Below are positions 43,568 through 60,473 of a DNA stretch of 64,000 nucleotides, piece after piece. This DNA is from a virus. Within the stretch, counting starts at the first letter, position 1. Every line of letters starts with the position of its first letter. The stretch is taken from positions 52,803-116,802 of the IMG/VR virus record IMGVR_UViG_3300010413_000004; one strand, written 5' to 3'. The position numbers and the translations under genes were made by a program. The notes beneath the pieces were generated by a model. It worked only from the letters and a program-made list of their open reading frames with translations, was not told the DNA's origin and made no database searches.

Positions 43568-44224
43568 TTAGGAAGTCGCCCGTCTTGCTCGTTTCTTCGG
43601 AGCAGCTTTTTTGGTTTTAGCCTTTTCTTCACGTTCCTTTTCTAGCTCTTTTTCTTCGTGCTCTTGCTTGATAATCTCTACCATGTTTTCCAGTCTTGAA
43701 CGGATTTCGGTAGAGTGGATCCACAGATCATCACCACGTAGAATTCCTTCTAGTTCATCTTCGGTAAGGAACGGTACATAAATGTCTTGAGCAAGGTCAT
43801 TGAACCATTTAATTGTTGCACTTAGTTGTGCGATTTGTTCATTGCCTTTGCCCCATGTACCTCCACTATAATTGTGGAACATCATCATGCAGTTATCGTG
43901 AACAATAAACTCATCTGCAGCAAGGAAAATTAGTGTTCCGAGCGAATGTGCTTCTGATTCCAAACTACAAACCACATGAGCTTCCGATGCACGCATTGCG
44001 TTTACCAATTGAACGCCCGTGTCTAATCGACCACCAGGAGTGTTGAGGTGAATATGTACAATGTCGTGAGGTGCTGCGGATCTAATTTGGTGAATCATTG
44101 CAATGTAATGAGTTGGGTCTGCAATGCTTTGGCTTAGGTAATAATGGTGAATCTTGCTCGTGATTTGTTGCTCGTAATACTCGTAGGGTTTACTTTCTTC
44201 AATATCGTTCTCAATTGCAGACAT
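43568..44224 (-). CDS. ClpP-like serine protease
   Basis: 218 residues. The ClpP fold is visible: HLNTPGGRLDTGVQLVNAM, the nucleophile S94 in EAHSLGTL, H117 in MMFHNYSGG and Asp in RGDDLWI near 166, close to E. coli ClpP spacing. A Lys/Ala/Arg-rich C-terminal tail of 25 residues is extra. In phages such proteins can be prohead proteases, but no head genes are near. It lies directly downstream of the tmRNA, facing the same way, which suggests a link to tagged proteins. Confidence 0.85.
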   Translation of the reverse strand: MSAIENDIEESKPYEYYEQQITSKIHHYYLSQSIADPTHYIAMIHQIRSAAPHDIVHIHLNTPGGRLDTGVQLVNAMRASEAHVVCSLESEAHSLGTLIFLAADEFIVHDNCMMMFHNYSGGTWGKGNEQIAQLSATIKWFNDLAQDIYVPFLTEDELEGILRGDDLWIHSTEIRSRLENMVEIIKQEHEEKELEKEREEKAKTKKAAPKKRARRATS

Positions 44225-44260: not shown

Positions 44261-44602
44261 GGGAGTCTTTCGACTCCCACGACTAAATTGCGATCGTTTT
44301 GTTATAAGGTGATCAACCTCAATGGATTAAGCTGCGAGAGCAACATCTCCATAGAATGCATTGTCGTTTGCATTTGTGTTTAGTTTAGTGTTAACGTCTT
44401 CTGTGACGCATTGTCCGGTCATCTTTCGCTACCCTGTCGAAACCGGGACATCCCCATCATAAGCATATTAACTCACTAAGAATTTTTGTGATTTAAAGTA
44501 GATAACTATACCTTCCTTCTACTTATTAATACGCTTATGGTGGAGATGGCGGGAATCGAACCCGCGTCCACGGCATTTACTCAATTTCCTTCACACAATG
44601 AT
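44261..44602 (-). ncRNA. ssrA: Circularly permuted two-piece tmRNA
   Basis: On the minus strand the acceptor piece comes first. Its T-arm GCGGG-TTCGATT-CCCGC (44549-44565) is followed by CATCTCC, A and CCA ending at 44538. After an 82-base intervening segment the coding piece begins at 44455 with GGGGATG, which pairs over seven bases with CATCTCC; then comes GGTTTCGACAGGG, the tmRNA 5' signature. The intervening segment's ends pair over 12 bases, extending the acceptor stem. The tag frame (44371-44327) reads ANDNAFYGDVALAA then TAA. ACAATG after the acceptor half can pair with CATTGT in the acceptor piece. A GGGAGTC-GAAA-GACTCCC hairpin closes the 3' end. The 5' and 3' ends are estimates. Confidence 0.92.
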
Positions 44603-44607
44603 AGTTA

Positions 44608-44615
44608 TATTTATA
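44608..44615 (-). promoter_or_regulatory. Late promoter box TATAAATA for the tmRNA
   Basis: TATAAATA on the minus strand, with the expected start near 44602, right before the acceptor piece of the tmRNA and after the stop of the Acb1-like gene. Confidence 0.6.
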
Positions 44616-44634
44616 CTATTTTATCGAAAAGTTA

Positions 44635-45132
44635 TCAACTGTTATCTTTTGCCCAGTTGAGGTTCAGATCTTCAGAATATTCCCCGTTGATTTGAATGTC
44701 CTTTTCGAAATCTGGTAAATCAGACACCTTCAAGTTTCCGACGTCATAAGAAAGCGTGATATGCGGCTTATATTTGTCGTAATCGTACGTTGCATTATGC
44801 TCTTTCATGAGATAATCGTGACGTTCGGATAATTCGGGGCACTCATATAGTAAAACTAGACACATCGATACTTTACCATCTTCATCAGGTTGAGATGGCC
44901 ACTTTTCCATTTTAACAGGAGTCCCTTTAAAAAGGGGAACGTATTCTTTTTTAGGTTCATACTTTGGCAGATATTTGCGGCTGTACAATAGCGTAGTGTG
45001 CAATTTATCCGAATCTACGGGGTTCGGAATATCAGCAGTTTTAATGTAATCGCTTATATCTTTAACTGTATCGTCACTGAATGTCACGCCAGCATATGTT
45101 CCTTTTTGGTTGTTTACTTCTGATAACATCAT
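44635..45132 (-). CDS. acb1: Acb1-like anti-CBASS 2H phosphoesterase
   Basis: 165 residues. Two HxT motifs, LHTTLLYSRKY (H45, T47) and KPHITLSYDVG (H124, T126), sit at spacing close to the catalytic residues of T4 Acb1 (gp57B; H44/T46/H113/T115 as I recall). Other matches to the family pattern include KGTYAGVTF, IPNPV, CLVLLYECPELSERH and EYSEDLNLNW. Acb1 enzymes cut cyclic oligonucleotide signals and so disable CBASS defence. AGGAAG precedes the ATG. It lies between the DHFR gene and the tmRNA promoter. Confidence 0.88.
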   Translation of the reverse strand: MMLSEVNNQKGTYAGVTFSDDTVKDISDYIKTADIPNPVDSDKLHTTLLYSRKYLPKYEPKKEYVPLFKGTPVKMEKWPSQPDEDGKVSMCLVLLYECPELSERHDYLMKEHNATYDYDKYKPHITLSYDVGNLKVSDLPDFEKDIQINGEYSEDLNLNWAKDNS

Positions 45133-47890: not shown

Positions 47891-48075
47891 CTTAGTATCT
47901 TTCCGCTTGGAGGTCTAGTATCGCCCCCACCACGTAAAATTGCAACGTTATCGTTTAACTGTTTGGCGAGGCGTTCTGCCACGTCAGTGTCCAGATGAAC
48001 TGTTGTGATTAATCCATCACCAGTACGAAATGACATAAAGATTTTTTCTTCGTCGTAGTCTATTCCAGCTTTCAT
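47887..48075 (-). CDS. Very small hypothetical protein
   Basis: 62 residues, starting MKAGIDYDEEKIFMSFRTGD, with a strand-helix plan (VHLDTDVAERLAKQLND). It overlaps the Thg1-like gene by four bases and the MazG gene by four bases. Family unknown. Confidence 0.55.
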   Translation of the reverse strand: MKAGIDYDEEKIFMSFRTGDGLITTVHLDTDVAERLAKQLNDNVAILRGGGDTRPPSGKILR

Positions 48076-48830
48076 GATTCTTGAGCCTCCAGGTGCTTGT
48101 CAACGTATTCGCGGTCTTGTGTGAAGATCGGAATTTCACGATCAACGCGAACTTCTGTTTCCGGCTCACCATCAGTAACACGAGCCACAACACGCTCAAC
48201 GCAAGTGCCACGACGTTTCCAAGTATCGATGTTGTTCCAATTTACACCGTGGTCCTCCATCAACATATCTTGAATTTGGCTGACATTTTTCTCGTGCATC
48301 TGTTTGTGACTAAAATAGTGTCTTCCAAGCATTTGAACGCTGTTACGACTTGCATCCTGTTGGCGCCAAATGAAATAGTTCGTTACTTCTTCTTTTGGTA
48401 GGTTAAAGACGCGAGCATCGAACATTGCTGGTGTAACATTTCCACTAGCAAAAGTGTTGTTGAAATAGGCAGTGGACATGGATGCAGCAACAGAAGCCAT
48501 CTTTTGAATACTATTGTCAAACCATTGGCTGGTTTCCAATTTTTTCCAGTCATTAATCAGAATAGAAATCTCGTCAGATTGAGTATATCCAAGCACAGCA
48601 TTCTGAACATTCTCAATTAATAAACGAGTGGTTTCGGTCATGGCCACATTCATAATATCACTAAACGGATCGTCTTGGAGTCCAAAATCGATCTTTTTGA
48701 GTTGCTTGGTCCAAGTGTGAAACGCCTTACCATCAATACGAATGATGACAGGTGTGCGCTTCATCAGTTTAGCTTTGGGAATGGCTTCGTATCCCTTCAT
48801 GCGGTCACCCAGTGAATCTTTTTTGCTCAT
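48072..48830 (-). CDS. Thg1-like 3'-5' RNA polymerase (tRNA-His guanylyltransferase family)
   Basis: 252 residues. The palm motifs are VIIRIDGKAFHTW (metal Asp, D33) and GYTQSDEISIL (D86, E87), with SVAASMSTAYFN and FNLPKEEVTNYFIWRQQDASRNS, a highly typical Thg1/TLP signature. These enzymes add nucleotides to the 5' end of RNA in the 3'-5' direction. It could add G to tRNA-His or repair damaged tRNA 5' ends, which could counter tRNA cleavage. It is near the tmRNA and a weak PTH2-like gene. Confidence 0.93.
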   Translation of the reverse strand: MSKKDSLGDRMKGYEAIPKAKLMKRTPVIIRIDGKAFHTWTKQLKKIDFGLQDDPFSDIMNVAMTETTRLLIENVQNAVLGYTQSDEISILINDWKKLETSQWFDNSIQKMASVAASMSTAYFNNTFASGNVTPAMFDARVFNLPKEEVTNYFIWRQQDASRNSVQMLGRHYFSHKQMHEKNVSQIQDMLMEDHGVNWNNIDTWKRRGTCVERVVARVTDGEPETEVRVDREIPIFTQDREYVDKHLEAQES

Positions 48831-51417: not shown

Positions 51418-52959
51418 TTATACGTCTGGTTCATCAGATACATAATAATCATATGTTACCTCTCCATCTTTTAGTCCAATCACTACTTTTACGTCGCCTG
51501 TAATGGAATCAACCGATTCGAGTGTGACATCGTACCCCCACAAAAATGAAATGTAACGTAGCGTATCAACTGCAGTTTCGGTTGAAAGTGGCCTTCCGTT
51601 AACCATATTGTGTTGCAACCCAAGTCGTCGGTCGCCCCATCTATCAACATCATACACTTGGATATCTGGTATCATCATTCCGATATTGTATTGTTGAGCT
51701 AGAGTATCTCGTACTTTCTTGTATCCTGACTGATTGTGAATGCCTGTAACTTCCAACATTGGATCGCGTTCATCATCCTGTATAGCGAACATTCGGAAAT
51801 CTCTCATCACTTTAGGCGATAGAAACTGCTTAATAAAACTCTCATCTTTGAAGTTCTCTACCGCCCATTTGATAGTTCCTAACCAATCTCCACTGCCAAC
51901 CCACTCTTGATTGGAAAACCACTCACGATCCTCATCAGTGGGGTCGGTTGCTACACGCTCGATGTCACAATACATAGCAAAACCAAGTGCGTAAGGATTG
52001 AAACTATCAAACTTGCGTTGAGTGAGAACGTTGGCGTGCGAATGGTAAAATTCTAACATTGCTCCATGATCGAGAATTCCTTCATCGTGCAAGTCATGAA
52101 TGATCTTATAATGGAAGAACGTTGCGCATCCTTCGTTCATCATCTTTGTTTGATATTGTGGATAGAAATACTGAGAAACCTTGCGAACAATTCTCAGCAA
52201 TTCTCGTTTCCACGTTTCCATGCGAGGTGCATTCTTTTCAATAAAGTATATGATGTTTTCCTGTGGTTCCGAAGGAAAACGTTCACGTTCTGCGTCTTTA
52301 GCTTCGACGCTATCCGTTACGGGAATTGTTCGCCAAATGTCGTTGATTTGAGATTGAAGATAACGCTCGCGTTCTTCTTGAAGCTTTTCTTCTTCTGCAG
52401 CAGACAGCTTCGTCGGACGACTATATTTGTCAACGCCATGCATCTCAATTGCGTGCGCTGCATCAAGTACAGCCTCCACTTCACCAATACCATACATCTC
52501 TTCACATTTGCTCACATATCGTTTTGCGAACAGAAGATAGTCGATAATGCCTTCAGCGTCTGTCCATTGTTTGAACAGGTAGTTGTTCTTAAAGAAGAAG
52601 TTGTGACCAAAAGCAGCATGAGCGATAACCAGCGTTTGCATCAACATCGTGTTCTCTTCCATAAGATATGAAATGCAGGGATTGGAGTTGATTACAATCT
52701 CATATGCAAGGCCCATGTAACCACGTTTGTATGCTTCAGTTTGCTTAACAAACTGCTCGCCGTGTGACCAGTGAGGATAGAAAACAGGAAGCCCATGAGA
52801 TGTGTACGCATCCAACATTTGCTCGGAAGAAATAATTTCGAGCTGATTGGGGTACACATCAAGATCGTACTTGGACTTGGCAATTCGTTCGATGTGCTCG
52901 TACACATCCTCAACGTCACCAAACGTCCATTCTTGTCCCGATTTAATTTTAAGTGTCAT
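51418..52959 (-). CDS. spoVR: SpoVR/YcgB-family protein
   Basis: 513 residues from the ATG at 52959, preceded by GAGGAA; E. coli YcgB is 510. SpoVR signatures: YPNQLEIISSEQMLDAY, LPVFYPHWSHGEQF, AYEIVINSNPCISYLMEENT and VIAHAAFGHNFFFKNN, and later GCATFFHYKII. The family occurs with PrkA and YeaH in bacterial stress operons; in Bacillus SpoVR affects spore cortex, in enterics YcgB is a starvation-stage protein. The biochemical role is unknown. Ten bases separate it from yeaH. Confidence 0.93.
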   Translation of the reverse strand: MTLKIKSGQEWTFGDVEDVYEHIERIAKSKYDLDVYPNQLEIISSEQMLDAYTSHGLPVFYPHWSHGEQFVKQTEAYKRGYMGLAYEIVINSNPCISYLMEENTMLMQTLVIAHAAFGHNFFFKNNYLFKQWTDAEGIIDYLLFAKRYVSKCEEMYGIGEVEAVLDAAHAIEMHGVDKYSRPTKLSAAEEEKLQEERERYLQSQINDIWRTIPVTDSVEAKDAERERFPSEPQENIIYFIEKNAPRMETWKRELLRIVRKVSQYFYPQYQTKMMNEGCATFFHYKIIHDLHDEGILDHGAMLEFYHSHANVLTQRKFDSFNPYALGFAMYCDIERVATDPTDEDREWFSNQEWVGSGDWLGTIKWAVENFKDESFIKQFLSPKVMRDFRMFAIQDDERDPMLEVTGIHNQSGYKKVRDTLAQQYNIGMMIPDIQVYDVDRWGDRRLGLQHNMVNGRPLSTETAVDTLRYISFLWGYDVTLESVDSITGDVKVVIGLKDGEVTYDYYVSDEPDV

Positions 52960-52969
52960 GAGATTCCTC

Positions 52970-54274
52970 TTATGCTTTCTTTTCAAAAAGGCTTCTGAAA
53001 ATGGGATAAATGTCTGATACGTCATTTATCATTGACATTTCAAAATGACCAAAGCTGCTACGTAGCTTTTCGTAGTATGGCCACAAGTCACTTTCACCTT
53101 CGTGTTGATGTCGATCGACCTCAACATATGCGAAAAATTGACTTTTTGGAAGGATGCTACTCTTCATGATGTCAATTACTTCCAGGTTGTCTTGGCCCCA
53201 GTTGTCCCCATCAGAAATTTGACACCCAAAGATGTTCCATTGATTAATTGGGTATCGTTCTTTGATAATGTCGCTCATCAACTCAAGTGCTGAAGAAACT
53301 AAAGTGCCACCAGTTTCTTTTGAGTAGAAGAACTCTTCCTCTGATACTTCTGAAGCTCGAGTGTGATGTCGAATCCAAACGATATCAACTTTTTCATAAT
53401 TGCGTTCCAAGAATAGGTATAACAACATGAAGAAACGTTTAGCCATTTCCTTTTCCCATTCGCCCATACTTGCAGAAACGTCCATAATGCCAAACATAAC
53501 AGCTTGGGTGGTTGGGACAGGAGTCTTTTCCCAACGATTGAATCGAAGATCAACATCATCGATGAAAGGAACTGCTTTCATCTTACGTTTGAGAACTTCT
53601 ATTTCCTTTTTGATTTCTTCAATGCGACATATGATCTTGGTATCTTGCTCTTCATCATTAGTTGGCAAACTATCTTCAAGTGATGCCAATTCCTCTTCGA
53701 GTTTTTTGATCTTTTTCTTGAATGGAGATCGCAAGCCAAGTTTACGAGCTTTAGCTTGCTTAAGAGAACGAACAATGTTCATCCGGCTTGGATTTCCATC
53801 GACAGAAAAGCCTGCACGATGGTACTCGAACTCGTTTACTTTGGAAATATCTTTTTTGACTAAGTCAGGAAGTTCTAGATCCTCGAAGAAGATGTCCAAG
53901 AATTCGTCTTTCGTGAGGTGGAAAATGAACTCATCTTCACCTTCACCATCGGGAGATCCTTTCTTTCCACCTCCTCCATCTGCTTCGGGTGGGCGAGATA
54001 CTCTGTCACCTTGGTTGTATTTGTCATTCCCTGGATACGTTCGATCAACGATTCCACCTTTTTTATCATGCGAAAACGTTGGTTGTTCCAACCCTTTGCC
54101 AGGGATGCTAATCTTTTTGCCTTTGTCGCTTGTGATGTCACGTACATTTCCATCACGAATAGCATCCTTGACAGCGTCGCGAACTTGTTGCTTGACTCGT
54201 CGCATGAATCGACGACGATTGTCTGTACTTTTACCCTTGTCGTTCTTGCGTCTGTCTATTACTGTATGGGACAT
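52970..54274 (-). CDS. yeaH: YeaH/DUF444 von Willebrand-type protein
   Basis: 434 residues, near E. coli YeaH (427). The N-terminal basic region reads SHTVIDRRKNDKGKSTDNRRRF, followed by a Gly-rich linker, a coiled coil (about 185-235) and a vWA domain with MIDAS-like IMDVSASMGEWEK (D265-x-S-x-S) and later ETGGTLVSSALE. YeaH is the partner of PrkA (YeaG) in enterobacteria, where the pair affects nitrogen-starvation response. It sits between the kinase and SpoVR genes, with one small gene between. Confidence 0.94.
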   Translation of the reverse strand: MSHTVIDRRKNDKGKSTDNRRRFMRRVKQQVRDAVKDAIRDGNVRDITSDKGKKISIPGKGLEQPTFSHDKKGGIVDRTYPGNDKYNQGDRVSRPPEADGGGGKKGSPDGEGEDEFIFHLTKDEFLDIFFEDLELPDLVKKDISKVNEFEYHRAGFSVDGNPSRMNIVRSLKQAKARKLGLRSPFKKKIKKLEEELASLEDSLPTNDEEQDTKIICRIEEIKKEIEVLKRKMKAVPFIDDVDLRFNRWEKTPVPTTQAVMFGIMDVSASMGEWEKEMAKRFFMLLYLFLERNYEKVDIVWIRHHTRASEVSEEEFFYSKETGGTLVSSALELMSDIIKERYPINQWNIFGCQISDGDNWGQDNLEVIDIMKSSILPKSQFFAYVEVDRHQHEGESDLWPYYEKLRSSFGHFEMSMINDVSDIYPIFRSLFEKKA

Positions 54275-54277
54275 GAA

Positions 54278-54478
54278 TTATCCTTCAATACTGGTTTGGC
54301 CTGTTAGTAGCTCAAACTCTTTTAGTATCTTCTTCTTGGTTCGTTTAAGATTCCGCAGCGGAAAGATACATCGATTGTATAGTCTACTAACTCGCTGGCC
54401 AGTGTTGCTGGTTCCGACGAGCAATTGATGCTCGTCGCCAGCTAAACCGCAGTAAGTATGAAACTTAACTGTAAGCAT
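54278..54478 (-). CDS. Small hypothetical protein inside the PrkA-YeaH cassette
   Basis: 66 residues, basic: MLTVKFHTYCGLAGDEHQLL, then LYNRCIFPLRNLKRTKKKIL. Its ATG overlaps the PrkA stop (TAATG) and yeaH follows after three bases, so all are co-translated. I know no counterpart in bacterial PrkA operons; it may be phage-specific. Confidence 0.6.
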   Translation of the reverse strand: MLTVKFHTYCGLAGDEHQLLVGTSNTGQRVSRLYNRCIFPLRNLKRTKKKILKEFELLTGQTSIEG

Positions 54479-56430
54479 TAGTTGTGCTTACGGTAGCGCA
54501 TGAACCACTCTACAGCCAGTCGAACCTGCTTTTTGGTATAACCCTTGTCGATCATTCGCTGAACGAAGTCGTTGTGCTTCTCTTCCTCTTCTTTCGATGC
54601 TTTCTTGCTGAAGGAAATTACGGGAAGCAGTTCTTCGGTGTTGGCAAACATCTTCTTCTCGATGATTTCAGCCAGCTTGGAGTAAGAAGTCCAAGCTGGA
54701 CTCTTTCCACCATTGGCCGCTTTTGCGCGAAGAACGAAACCGACAACTTCATTTCGGAAGTCTTTTGGATTCATGATGCCAGCAGGCTTTTCGATTTTTT
54801 CCAGTTCAGCATTCAGAGAACTACGATCAAATAGTTCGCCAGTGTCTGGGTCACGGTAATCAGAATCTTGCAGCCAGAAGTCAGCGTACTGAATGTAGCG
54901 GTCGAACAGATTCTGACCATACTCGGCGTAGCTTTCGAGGTACGCTTTCTGGAGTTCATCACCAAGGAACTCAGCATACTTCGGTGCAAGGACACCTTTG
55001 ATGAAGGAGATGCGACGATCTTCCTCTTCGGCAGGCAGTTGCTCTTGCATTACCTGCTTCTCCAGCACATACATTAGGTGGATTGGATTAGCAGCAACTT
55101 CTTCGGAGTCGTAGTTGAACACTTTGGACAGGATCTTGAATGCAAAGCGAGTGGATGAACCTTCCATTCCTTCATTGACCCCAGCTGCATCGCGATACTC
55201 TTCAAGAGATTTCGCTTGTGGATCACGGTCTTTCAGATTCTTGCCGTCATAAATCTCCATCTTAGAGAATAGCTGACTGTTTTCAGGTTCAACCAGACGA
55301 GTCAGCACTGAGTACTGTGCCATCATTTCGATGGTGCCAGGAGCGCAGTTTGCATTTTTCAGTTCAGAACTTGCGACCAGCTTCTTGTAGATTTCTGACT
55401 CTTCGGTAACACGGAGGCAGTAAGGTACTTTAACGATGTTGACACGATCCAAGAACGCTTCGTTGTTCTTGTTGTTACGGAACGTCTGCCACTCAGATTC
55501 GTTTGAGTGAGCAAGAATGATGCCCTGGAACGGGATCGCTCCAAACTGCTCAGTACCGTTGTAGTGGCCTTCTTGTGTTGCAGTTAGAAGAGGGTGCAGC
55601 ATTTTGATTGGAGCCTTGAACATTTCAACAAACTCGAGAATGCCTTGAGTGGTAACATTCAAGCCACCAGCCCAGTTGTAAGCATCTGGATCATGCTGTT
55701 CATACTCTTCGAGTTCACGAATGTTGACTTTACCAACAAGGGATGAAATGTCTTGGTTATTTTCATCACCAGGCTCAACTTTGGTGATGCCTGTTTGTTT
55801 CAGAATGGAAGGCCAGACTTTGACGACCTTAAATTTGGTGATGTCACCATTTGCTTCTTCGAGACGTTTTACGGCCCAAGGAGACATGATGGACTTGAGG
55901 TAACGAGAAGGAATCCCAAACTCCCTTTCGATGTCAGCACCATCTTCTGCTACATCAAACAAACCGAGTGGAGACTCGAGTGCTGGGGAGACTTCCCAGC
56001 GATCACGACCCTTGTTATATGCTTGGATCGTGTAAATAGGAACACGCTGCATCAGCTCTTTGAGTCGCTCTGATAGAGACGACTTACCACCACCTACAGG
56101 ACCAAGCAGATAGAGGATCTGCTTTGATTCTTCAAGACCTTGTGCAGCGTGTTTGAAGAAAGAAACGATCTGTTCGATGGTATCTTCCATTCCATAGAAA
56201 TCATTGAAGGCGGGGTAGATTTTGATCTTTCGATTGGTGAAGATTCGGCTCAGACGTTCGTCTTTGCGAGTGTCAACAACGGTCGGCTCACCAATGGCCT
56301 CGATCATTCGCTCCGCTGCTGTGGCATACATCATTTTGTCGTCAGCACACCCTTGGAGATACTCTTCAATTGTCATCTCTTCGGATTGGCGTGTTTCATA
56401 ACGACTTTGATACTTCGAAAATATACTCAT
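54478..56430 (-). CDS. prkA: PrkA-type serine protein kinase (YeaG)
   Basis: 650 residues; E. coli YeaG is 644. It begins MSIFSKYQSRYETRQSEEMTIEEYL-type, then an AAA-type ATP site LLGPVGGGKSSLSERLK (Walker A near 110-118), GILEFVEMFKAPIKML, and ILAHSNESEWQTF, all characteristic of PrkA. The C-terminal kinase-like half is complete. PrkA is linked to stress and starvation control in bacteria. GAGGAA precedes the ATG. It leads the three-gene cassette. Confidence 0.95.
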   Translation of the reverse strand: MSIFSKYQSRYETRQSEEMTIEEYLQGCADDKMMYATAAERMIEAIGEPTVVDTRKDERLSRIFTNRKIKIYPAFNDFYGMEDTIEQIVSFFKHAAQGLEESKQILYLLGPVGGGKSSLSERLKELMQRVPIYTIQAYNKGRDRWEVSPALESPLGLFDVAEDGADIEREFGIPSRYLKSIMSPWAVKRLEEANGDITKFKVVKVWPSILKQTGITKVEPGDENNQDISSLVGKVNIRELEEYEQHDPDAYNWAGGLNVTTQGILEFVEMFKAPIKMLHPLLTATQEGHYNGTEQFGAIPFQGIILAHSNESEWQTFRNNKNNEAFLDRVNIVKVPYCLRVTEESEIYKKLVASSELKNANCAPGTIEMMAQYSVLTRLVEPENSQLFSKMEIYDGKNLKDRDPQAKSLEEYRDAAGVNEGMEGSSTRFAFKILSKVFNYDSEEVAANPIHLMYVLEKQVMQEQLPAEEEDRRISFIKGVLAPKYAEFLGDELQKAYLESYAEYGQNLFDRYIQYADFWLQDSDYRDPDTGELFDRSSLNAELEKIEKPAGIMNPKDFRNEVVGFVLRAKAANGGKSPAWTSYSKLAEIIEKKMFANTEELLPVISFSKKASKEEEEKHNDFVQRMIDKGYTKKQVRLAVEWFMRYRKHN

Positions 56431-60399: not shown

Positions 60400-60473
60400 T
60401 GGTGGTGCGTGCCAGACTCGAACTGACATCCTGGAATTTAGAATTCCGTGAGCAACCTTTACCCCAACGCACC
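60400..60473 (-). tRNA. tRNA with CUA anticodon (amber-suppressor type)
   Basis: 74 bases including an encoded CCA. Acceptor GGTGCGT pairs fully with ACGCACC; discriminator A. D-stem GGGT/GCTC with loop AAAGGTT; T-stem GTCAG/CTGGC with loop TTCGAGT. The anticodon arm CGGAA-TTCTAAA-TTCCA has four pairs and one C-A mismatch, placing CTA at positions 34-36. That decodes UAG. A one-base shift to TCT (Arg) would destroy the stem. Neighbours end in ordinary stops, several of them TAG. Confidence 0.82.

What the first reader, a model, noticed from the sequence alone, without database searches (positions are those of the whole stretch)
44261..44602. Phage-encoded circularly permuted two-piece tmRNA
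The minus strand carries, in order, the tmRNA 3' half (T-arm, acceptor strand, encoded CCA), an 82-base segment whose ends pair over 12 bases, and the 5' half beginning GGGGATG with GGTTTCGACAGGG. The seven-base acceptor halves pair across the two pieces. The tag frame reads ANDNAFYGDVALAA and ends in TAA, the classical tag plan (AN...ALAA). One-piece tmRNAs are known in a few phages; permuted ones are known in some bacterial lineages. A permuted tmRNA in a T4-type phage is rare or undescribed to my knowledge.
Basis: partly seen in the sequence, partly recalled or inferred. Interest (0 to 1): 0.93.

Follow-up and report, generated by a model that had tools for sequence, protein, structure and literature searches.

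The report
Phage two-piece tmRNA beside clpP
A T4-type phage carries its own split (two-piece) version of the bacterial RNA that frees stalled ribosomes and tags their unfinished proteins for destruction; such phage RNAs were already known, but here, and in many related phages, it sits right behind its own promoter and right in front of a ClpP-like protease gene, hinting at a phage-run tag-and-shred unit.

Summary
Window 44600-44261 (-) is a circularly permuted tmRNA gene: Rfam RF04321 126 bits (cut-off 47), RF01850 95 bits, ARAGORN permuted call, tag ANDNAFYGDVALAA. In 16 relatives the acceptor and T stems pair at 100%, with two-sided changes in 8 of 12 pairs, while G3:U70, the alanine identity pair, never changes. 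The record has T4-type gp23 and gp21. The claim 'rare or undescribed' fails: 53 of 133 distinct phage tmRNAs were already called two-piece, including T4-type Melnitz (PMC9004378). What I did not find described is the setting. A TTGATA-N17-TATAAATA promoter (sigma70-like spacing plus T4 late element) ends 8 bases before the RNA, and a ClpP-like protease gene follows 37 bases after it. Of 31 related viral records with this ClpP family and a permuted tmRNA, 24 have the tmRNA just upstream on the same strand (0.5 expected at random), in two separate ClpP clades. No SmpB or Clp ATPase was found, so host partners are needed. Most likely function: trans-translation during infection, with phage ClpP as an inferred partner. 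Processing and any functional ClpP link are untested.

The parts
44608..44638 (-). Promoter-like element TTGATA-N17-TATAAATA: sigma70-like -35 at 44638-44633, T4 late-type TATAAATA at 44615-44608
   Evidence: Only match in the window; 0.02 expected. Same layout before the tmRNA of relatives: -35 match of 5/6 or better in 8 of 11 TATAAATA sites against 0 of 21 control sites, Fisher p 1.6e-5
44538..44600 (-). tRNA-like 3' half of the tmRNA: pre-T-arm segment, T-arm, acceptor 3' strand CATCTCC, A73, encoded CCA
   Evidence: RF04321 model positions 1 onward; stem covariation
44456..44537 (-). Intervening sequence of 82 bases closed by a 12-13 bp helix
   Evidence: comparable terminal helices in many relatives
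44261..44455 (-). 5' half / mRNA-like piece: acceptor GGGGATG, GGTTTCGAC, tag frame, terminal hairpin 44278-44261
44327..44371 (-). Tag reading frame ANDNAFYGDVALAA plus TAA
   Evidence: ARAGORN, RF04321 ends at this stop
43568..44224 (-). ClpP-like serine protease gene, 218 aa, phrog_1827; Ser94, His117, Asp166 kept
   Evidence: Pfam PF00574 3.5e-10, PHROG 1e-58, catalytic residues invariant in the 38-sequence alignment, AlphaFold pLDDT 94.6, best PDB match ClpP in a ClpX-ClpP complex
44635..45132 (-). Upstream neighbour: Acb1-like 2H phosphoesterase (anti-CBASS family); part of the conserved gene order, not of the tmRNA
   Evidence: PF23474 1.8e-37; homologues in 13 of 25 linked loci

Best explanation
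This is a genuine circularly permuted (two-piece) tmRNA gene of a T4-type phage. It is transcribed from its own promoter, which can be read both as a sigma70 promoter and as a T4-type late promoter. Host tRNA-processing enzymes remove the 82-base hairpin and leave two RNAs held together by the acceptor stem. Host alanyl-tRNA synthetase charges it through G3:U70 and A73. With host SmpB and EF-Tu it frees ribosomes stalled on broken mRNAs during infection and appends ANDNAFYGDVALAA, which host Clp proteases can recognise. The clpP-like gene 37 bases downstream is probably co-expressed and supplies a phage protease that acts in the same protein-turnover step. Shown by sequence: the gene, its folding constraint, the alanine identity pair, the tag frame, and the conserved promoter-tmRNA-clpP order. 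Inferred: transcription timing, processing, charging, tagging. Weakest step: that the phage ClpP itself degrades the tagged proteins.
For: RF04321 and RF01850 above cut-off and ARAGORN permuted call. In 16 relatives 100% of stem cells pair and 43 cells carry two-sided changes against 13.4 in shuffles, with G3:U70 in 16 of 16 and in all 25 loci. All 25 keep A73; most encode ACCA. Tag frames stay open; nearly all begin AND, and most end in a hydrophobic residue plus AA. Promoter element unique in the window and conserved before relatives' tmRNAs. TATAAATA also stands before the gene between gp21 and gp23 of this record. tmRNA directly upstream of clpP in 24 of 31 records, 0.47 expected at random, in two ClpP clades, and in L067/L089 and L081 without the other shared neighbours. 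A separate gp21 protease makes a prohead role for ClpP unlikely.
Against: No expression or processing data. Much of the linkage can be inherited synteny (thyA, DHFR, Acb1, tmRNA, clpP, primase, gp39). Cultured phages with this ClpP family that I checked (ICP1, Erwinia KEY) have no tmRNA annotated beside it, and cultured phages with permuted tmRNAs that I checked have no clpP annotated beside it. Positions equivalent to E. coli ClpP Tyr62, Ile90 and Met92, part of the hydrophobic pocket that binds ClpX/ClpA (my knowledge), are His59, Ser87 and Glu89 here (alignment), so normal docking of a host Clp ATPase may not happen. No phage SmpB or Clp ATPase C-domain found.
Confidence: 0.88

Rival explanations
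1. The tmRNA and clpP are neighbours only because both belong to an old conserved block of T4-type genes; there is no functional connection, and ClpP serves another purpose.
For: Shared order of thyA, DHFR, Acb1, tmRNA, clpP, primase and gp39 in many linked loci; this ClpP family occurs without an annotated tmRNA next to it in ICP1 and Demerecviridae; the likely ClpX-docking residues are changed.
Against: The pair persists at 36-58% ClpP identity, in two supported ClpP clades, and in loci sharing nothing else around it (L067/L089, L081). In another marine T4-type group a very different ClpP lies about 1 kb downstream of the tmRNA on the same strand.
Confidence: 0.45
2. The phage tmRNA acts as a decoy or competitor that blocks host trans-translation rather than performing it, as reported for the tag-less DS6A phage RNA.
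For: A phage tmRNA-like RNA without a tag frame inhibits endogenous tmRNA when expressed in E. coli (PMC11915505).
Against: Here the tag frame, stop codon, resume region, CCA, A73 and G3:U70 are all kept, also in diverged relatives, which a simple decoy would not need.
Confidence: 0.08
3. The gene is a recent accidental capture from a host or prophage and is not functional in the phage.
For: The T-arm/acceptor 32-mer also occurs exactly in many bacterial genomes.
Against: Compensatory changes across 16 phage sequences, open tags and a dedicated conserved promoter show selection inside the phage lineage. The 32-mer occurs in many unrelated phyla, so it says nothing about a recent source.
Confidence: 0.03
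4. The ClpP-like protein is the phage's head maturation protease and its position is incidental.
For: ClpP-like head proteases are common in other phages; weaker PHROG head-protease matches exist.
Against: Best family is phrog_1827 'ATP-dependent protease'; the record has its own T4-type gp21 protease near gp23, outside the window, far from clpP.
Confidence: 0.03

Closest known systems
Two-piece tmRNA of phage Melnitz and other phages (PMC9004378)
   Same: Phage-encoded permuted tmRNA in a T4-type myophage; 53 two-piece forms among 133 distinct phage tmRNAs in that survey
   Different: Melnitz ssrA is said to be controlled by a glutamine riboswitch and to lie in an operon directly upstream of the late transcription coactivator; Clp is not mentioned in that paper. 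Here the next gene is a phrog_1827 ClpP and the promoter is TTGATA-N17-TATAAATA
Rfam RF04321 tmRNA_permuted / RF01850 beta_tmRNA (bacterial two-piece tmRNA)
   Same: Whole model covered, above cut-off, same order of pieces, G3:U70, CCA, tag frame
   Different: Phage location; longer intervening hairpin than either model's consensus (insertions in both alignments); 14-residue tag
Permuted ssrA of Stenotrophomonas Menderavirus, DLP_6, Alcaligenes QDWS595 and Xanthomonas Rb1 phages
   Same: Permuted tmRNA in cultured phages
   Different: Not annotated next to clpP; mostly in tRNA clusters; unannotated in several of the records
phrog_1827 ClpP of ICP1, rv5-like and T5-like phages
   Same: Related ClpP family and catalytic residues
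   Different: 35-38% identity; no tmRNA annotated beside it in the records opened

Membership tests
Circularly permuted (two-piece) tmRNA | 3' tRNA-like half precedes 5' half in the gene | tested here: met
   RF04321 126 bits full length, ARAGORN permuted call; RF00023 only 31 bits
Circularly permuted (two-piece) tmRNA | Acceptor and T stems under pairing constraint | tested here: met
   100% paired, 8 of 12 pairs with two-sided changes
Circularly permuted (two-piece) tmRNA | Alanine identity G3:U70 with A73 and CCA | tested here: met
   Window and all 25 loci have G3:U70 and A73; window encodes CCA
Circularly permuted (two-piece) tmRNA | Tag reading frame with resume codon and stop | tested here: met
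   ANDNAFYGDVALAA then TAA
Circularly permuted (two-piece) tmRNA | Intervening segment removed to give two RNAs | not testable with these tools
   Only the closing helix of the 82-base segment is seen
Trans-translation system | Phage-encoded SmpB partner (not required if the host supplies it) | tested here: not met
   No PF01668 match in the phage record or 49 relatives, records being partial; a host SmpB would be needed
T4-type phage | gp23 capsid protein and gp21 protease | tested here: met
ClpP peptidase | ClpP fold with Ser-His-Asp triad | tested here: met
ClpP peptidase | Hydrophobic pocket for Clp ATPase loops | tested here: inconclusive
   Equivalent positions are His59, Ser87, Glu89 by profile alignment; no complex was modelled

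The most novel reading that the evidence does not exclude
Promoter, permuted tmRNA and clpP form a phage-encoded tag-and-degrade unit: the phage tags proteins from stalled ribosomes with its own degron and degrades them with its own ClpP, driven by a promoter usable both early and late, to recycle ribosomes and amino acids or to clear host or defence proteins.
Probability: 0.3. Interest if true: 0.8.

Novelty: new variant of a known kind. Interest (0 to 1): 0.55.

Why it matters
Phage tmRNAs have no settled function. A recurrent tmRNA-clpP pair with a conserved dedicated promoter gives a concrete, testable idea: some large phages bring both the tagging RNA and a protease. It also shows that phage two-piece tmRNAs are under strong selection for charging and tagging, not passive captures.

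Tried and rejected
One-piece tmRNA: rejected by model scores. ClpP as prohead protease: rejected because gp21 is present separately. Phage-encoded SmpB or Clp ATPase: none found. Host identification from the exact T-arm/acceptor 32-mer: useless, the string occurs in many phyla. My first two-motif regex missed diverged tmRNAs and was replaced by RF04321. Near-identity search for cultured relatives found only the T-arm string. Searches for a paper on phage tmRNA together with ClpP gave none describing the pair; the library is incomplete.

Full report
The observation. The minus strand at 44600-44261 reads exactly as described. ARAGORN calls a permuted tmRNA with tag ANDNAFYGDVALAA. Rfam gives RF04321 tmRNA_permuted at 126.3 bits (cut-off 47, full model) and RF01850 beta_tmRNA at 94.6 bits (cut-off 84). 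The standard model RF00023 gives only 31 bits. The strand folds better than all 100 shuffles, z -5.6. The 82-base intervening segment is closed by a 12-13 bp helix.

Where it lies. The window is positions 52803-116802 of a 116.8-kb virus record that may be a fragment. The record holds T4-type gp23 (318 bits) and gp21/S77 protease (92 bits), both outside the window, and the window holds topoisomerase, DnaB, DNA polymerase, PhoH and ribonucleotide reductase genes. 'T4-type' is therefore right.

Constraint. I took 24 relatives whose tmRNA lies within about 1.3 kb upstream of a related clpP, plus the window. All 25 have seven acceptor pairs, five T-stem pairs, G3:U70 and A73, and most encode ACCA. 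The extraction chose the best-pairing register, so I also counted on a fixed 39-column alignment of 16 of them: 100% of cells pair, 8 of 12 pairs have two-sided changes, 43 such cells against 13.4 in shuffles, and slides of one to three columns drop pairing to 50-64%. Positions 4 to 6 of the acceptor change freely in pairs while G3:U70 never does. This is what alanine charging requires (established knowledge of AlaRS). One low-scoring member (L030, 73 bits) has an unusual tag end and may be decayed.

Promoter. TTGATA-N17-TATAAATA occurs once in the window, ending 8 bases before the tmRNA; 0.02 expected. TATAAAT(A) is the T4 late element (used as such in PMC9004378). In the linked loci TATAAATA or GATAAATA lies mostly 12-17 bases before the tmRNA start. 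Of 11 TATAAATA sites, 8 have a -35 match of at least 5/6 at 17 bases, against 0 of 21 other TATAAATA sites in the same DNA (Fisher p 1.6e-5; sites are not fully independent because the phages are related). TATAAATA also stands directly before the gene between gp21 and gp23 in this record. The dual early/late reading is an inference from these motifs.

The neighbour. The gene 37 bases downstream encodes a ClpP-like protease with invariant Ser94, His117 and Asp166 and a confident ClpP fold whose best solved match is ClpP in a ClpX-ClpP complex with an ssrA-tagged substrate. Searching viral contigs with its profile gave 80 loci. Of 49 representative records, 31 had RF04321 above cut-off; in 24 the tmRNA is 120-1240 bases upstream on the same strand, 0.47 expected if placed at random. 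The random-placement figure ignores common descent. Against pure synteny, the linked loci fall into two supported ClpP clades, and L067/L089 and L081 share no other neighbour with the window's block. In the other direction, most permuted tmRNAs found by an exact T-arm string have no ClpP of this family nearby, so the link belongs to certain lineages. A marine group (L118 and others) has a different ClpP about 1 kb downstream of the tmRNA, next to the late coactivator gene.

Mechanism. No SmpB or Clp ATPase C-domain was found in 50 partial records, so host SmpB, EF-Tu, AlaRS, processing enzymes and Clp ATPases must serve. Whether phage ClpP docks host ClpX is doubtful: residues equivalent to Tyr62, Ile90 and Met92 of E. 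coli ClpP are His59, Ser87 and Glu89 (alignment; pocket residues from my own knowledge). I therefore hold the tmRNA function at high confidence and the ClpP partnership as a plausible inference only.

Known or new. Two-piece phage tmRNAs are published (PMC9004378) and in databases (PMC11915505: 79 phage tmRNA sequences of all forms); SmpB and tmRNA in huge phages were also noted (PMC7162821). I found no paper on the tmRNA-clpP pair. I rate it a new variant of a known kind, by its gene setting and not by its RNA architecture.

The confidence of 0.88 in the best explanation applies to the tmRNA reading; the rival 'ClpP is only a syntenic neighbour' is compatible with that reading and is scored separately at 0.45.

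Noticed in passing
window 60400-60473 (-): A well-formed tRNA with a CUA anticodon and encoded CCA (ARAGORN label tRNA-Pyl, Rfam tRNA 48.8 bits), that is a candidate amber suppressor; 7 of 38 checked large ORFs end in TAG, so TAG is also used as a stop.
   Followed up: partly
window 45142-44635 (-): The DHFR gene ends in TAG and its frame continues into the Acb1-like gene (open through the 300 bases checked), so reading of TAG by the CUA tRNA would give a DHFR-Acb1 fusion.
   Followed up: no
window 51418-56430 (-): PrkA/YeaG serine kinase, DUF444/YeaH and SpoVR genes in a row, a bacterial stress cassette in a phage; the kinase has 57-68% identity to Enterobacter phage LAU1 and uncultured phages of about 640 kb.
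   Followed up: partly
window 48072-48830 (-): Thg1-like tRNA-His guanylyltransferase gene (PF04446 2.6e-24) in the phage.
   Followed up: no
L168 5941-6317; L167 5940-6283; L169 5940-6368: Unannotated permuted tmRNAs in cultured Alcaligenes QDWS595, Stenotrophomonas DLP_6 and Xanthomonas Rb1 phages; L168 also has a tRNA with a UUA (stop-reading) anticodon overlapping the called tmRNA end.
   Followed up: partly
L118 4562-6731 and L109, L112, L144, L161: Marine T4-type contigs with a permuted tmRNA, tRNA(s), small genes, a ClpP of another subfamily and, in L118, the late coactivator gp33 in a row on one strand.
   Followed up: partly
L034 1656-1909: Unusually long predicted tag of about 29 residues (ANDNVYGDNVVFADFGRKNAAVAPLAMAA) in a clpP-linked permuted tmRNA.
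   Followed up: no
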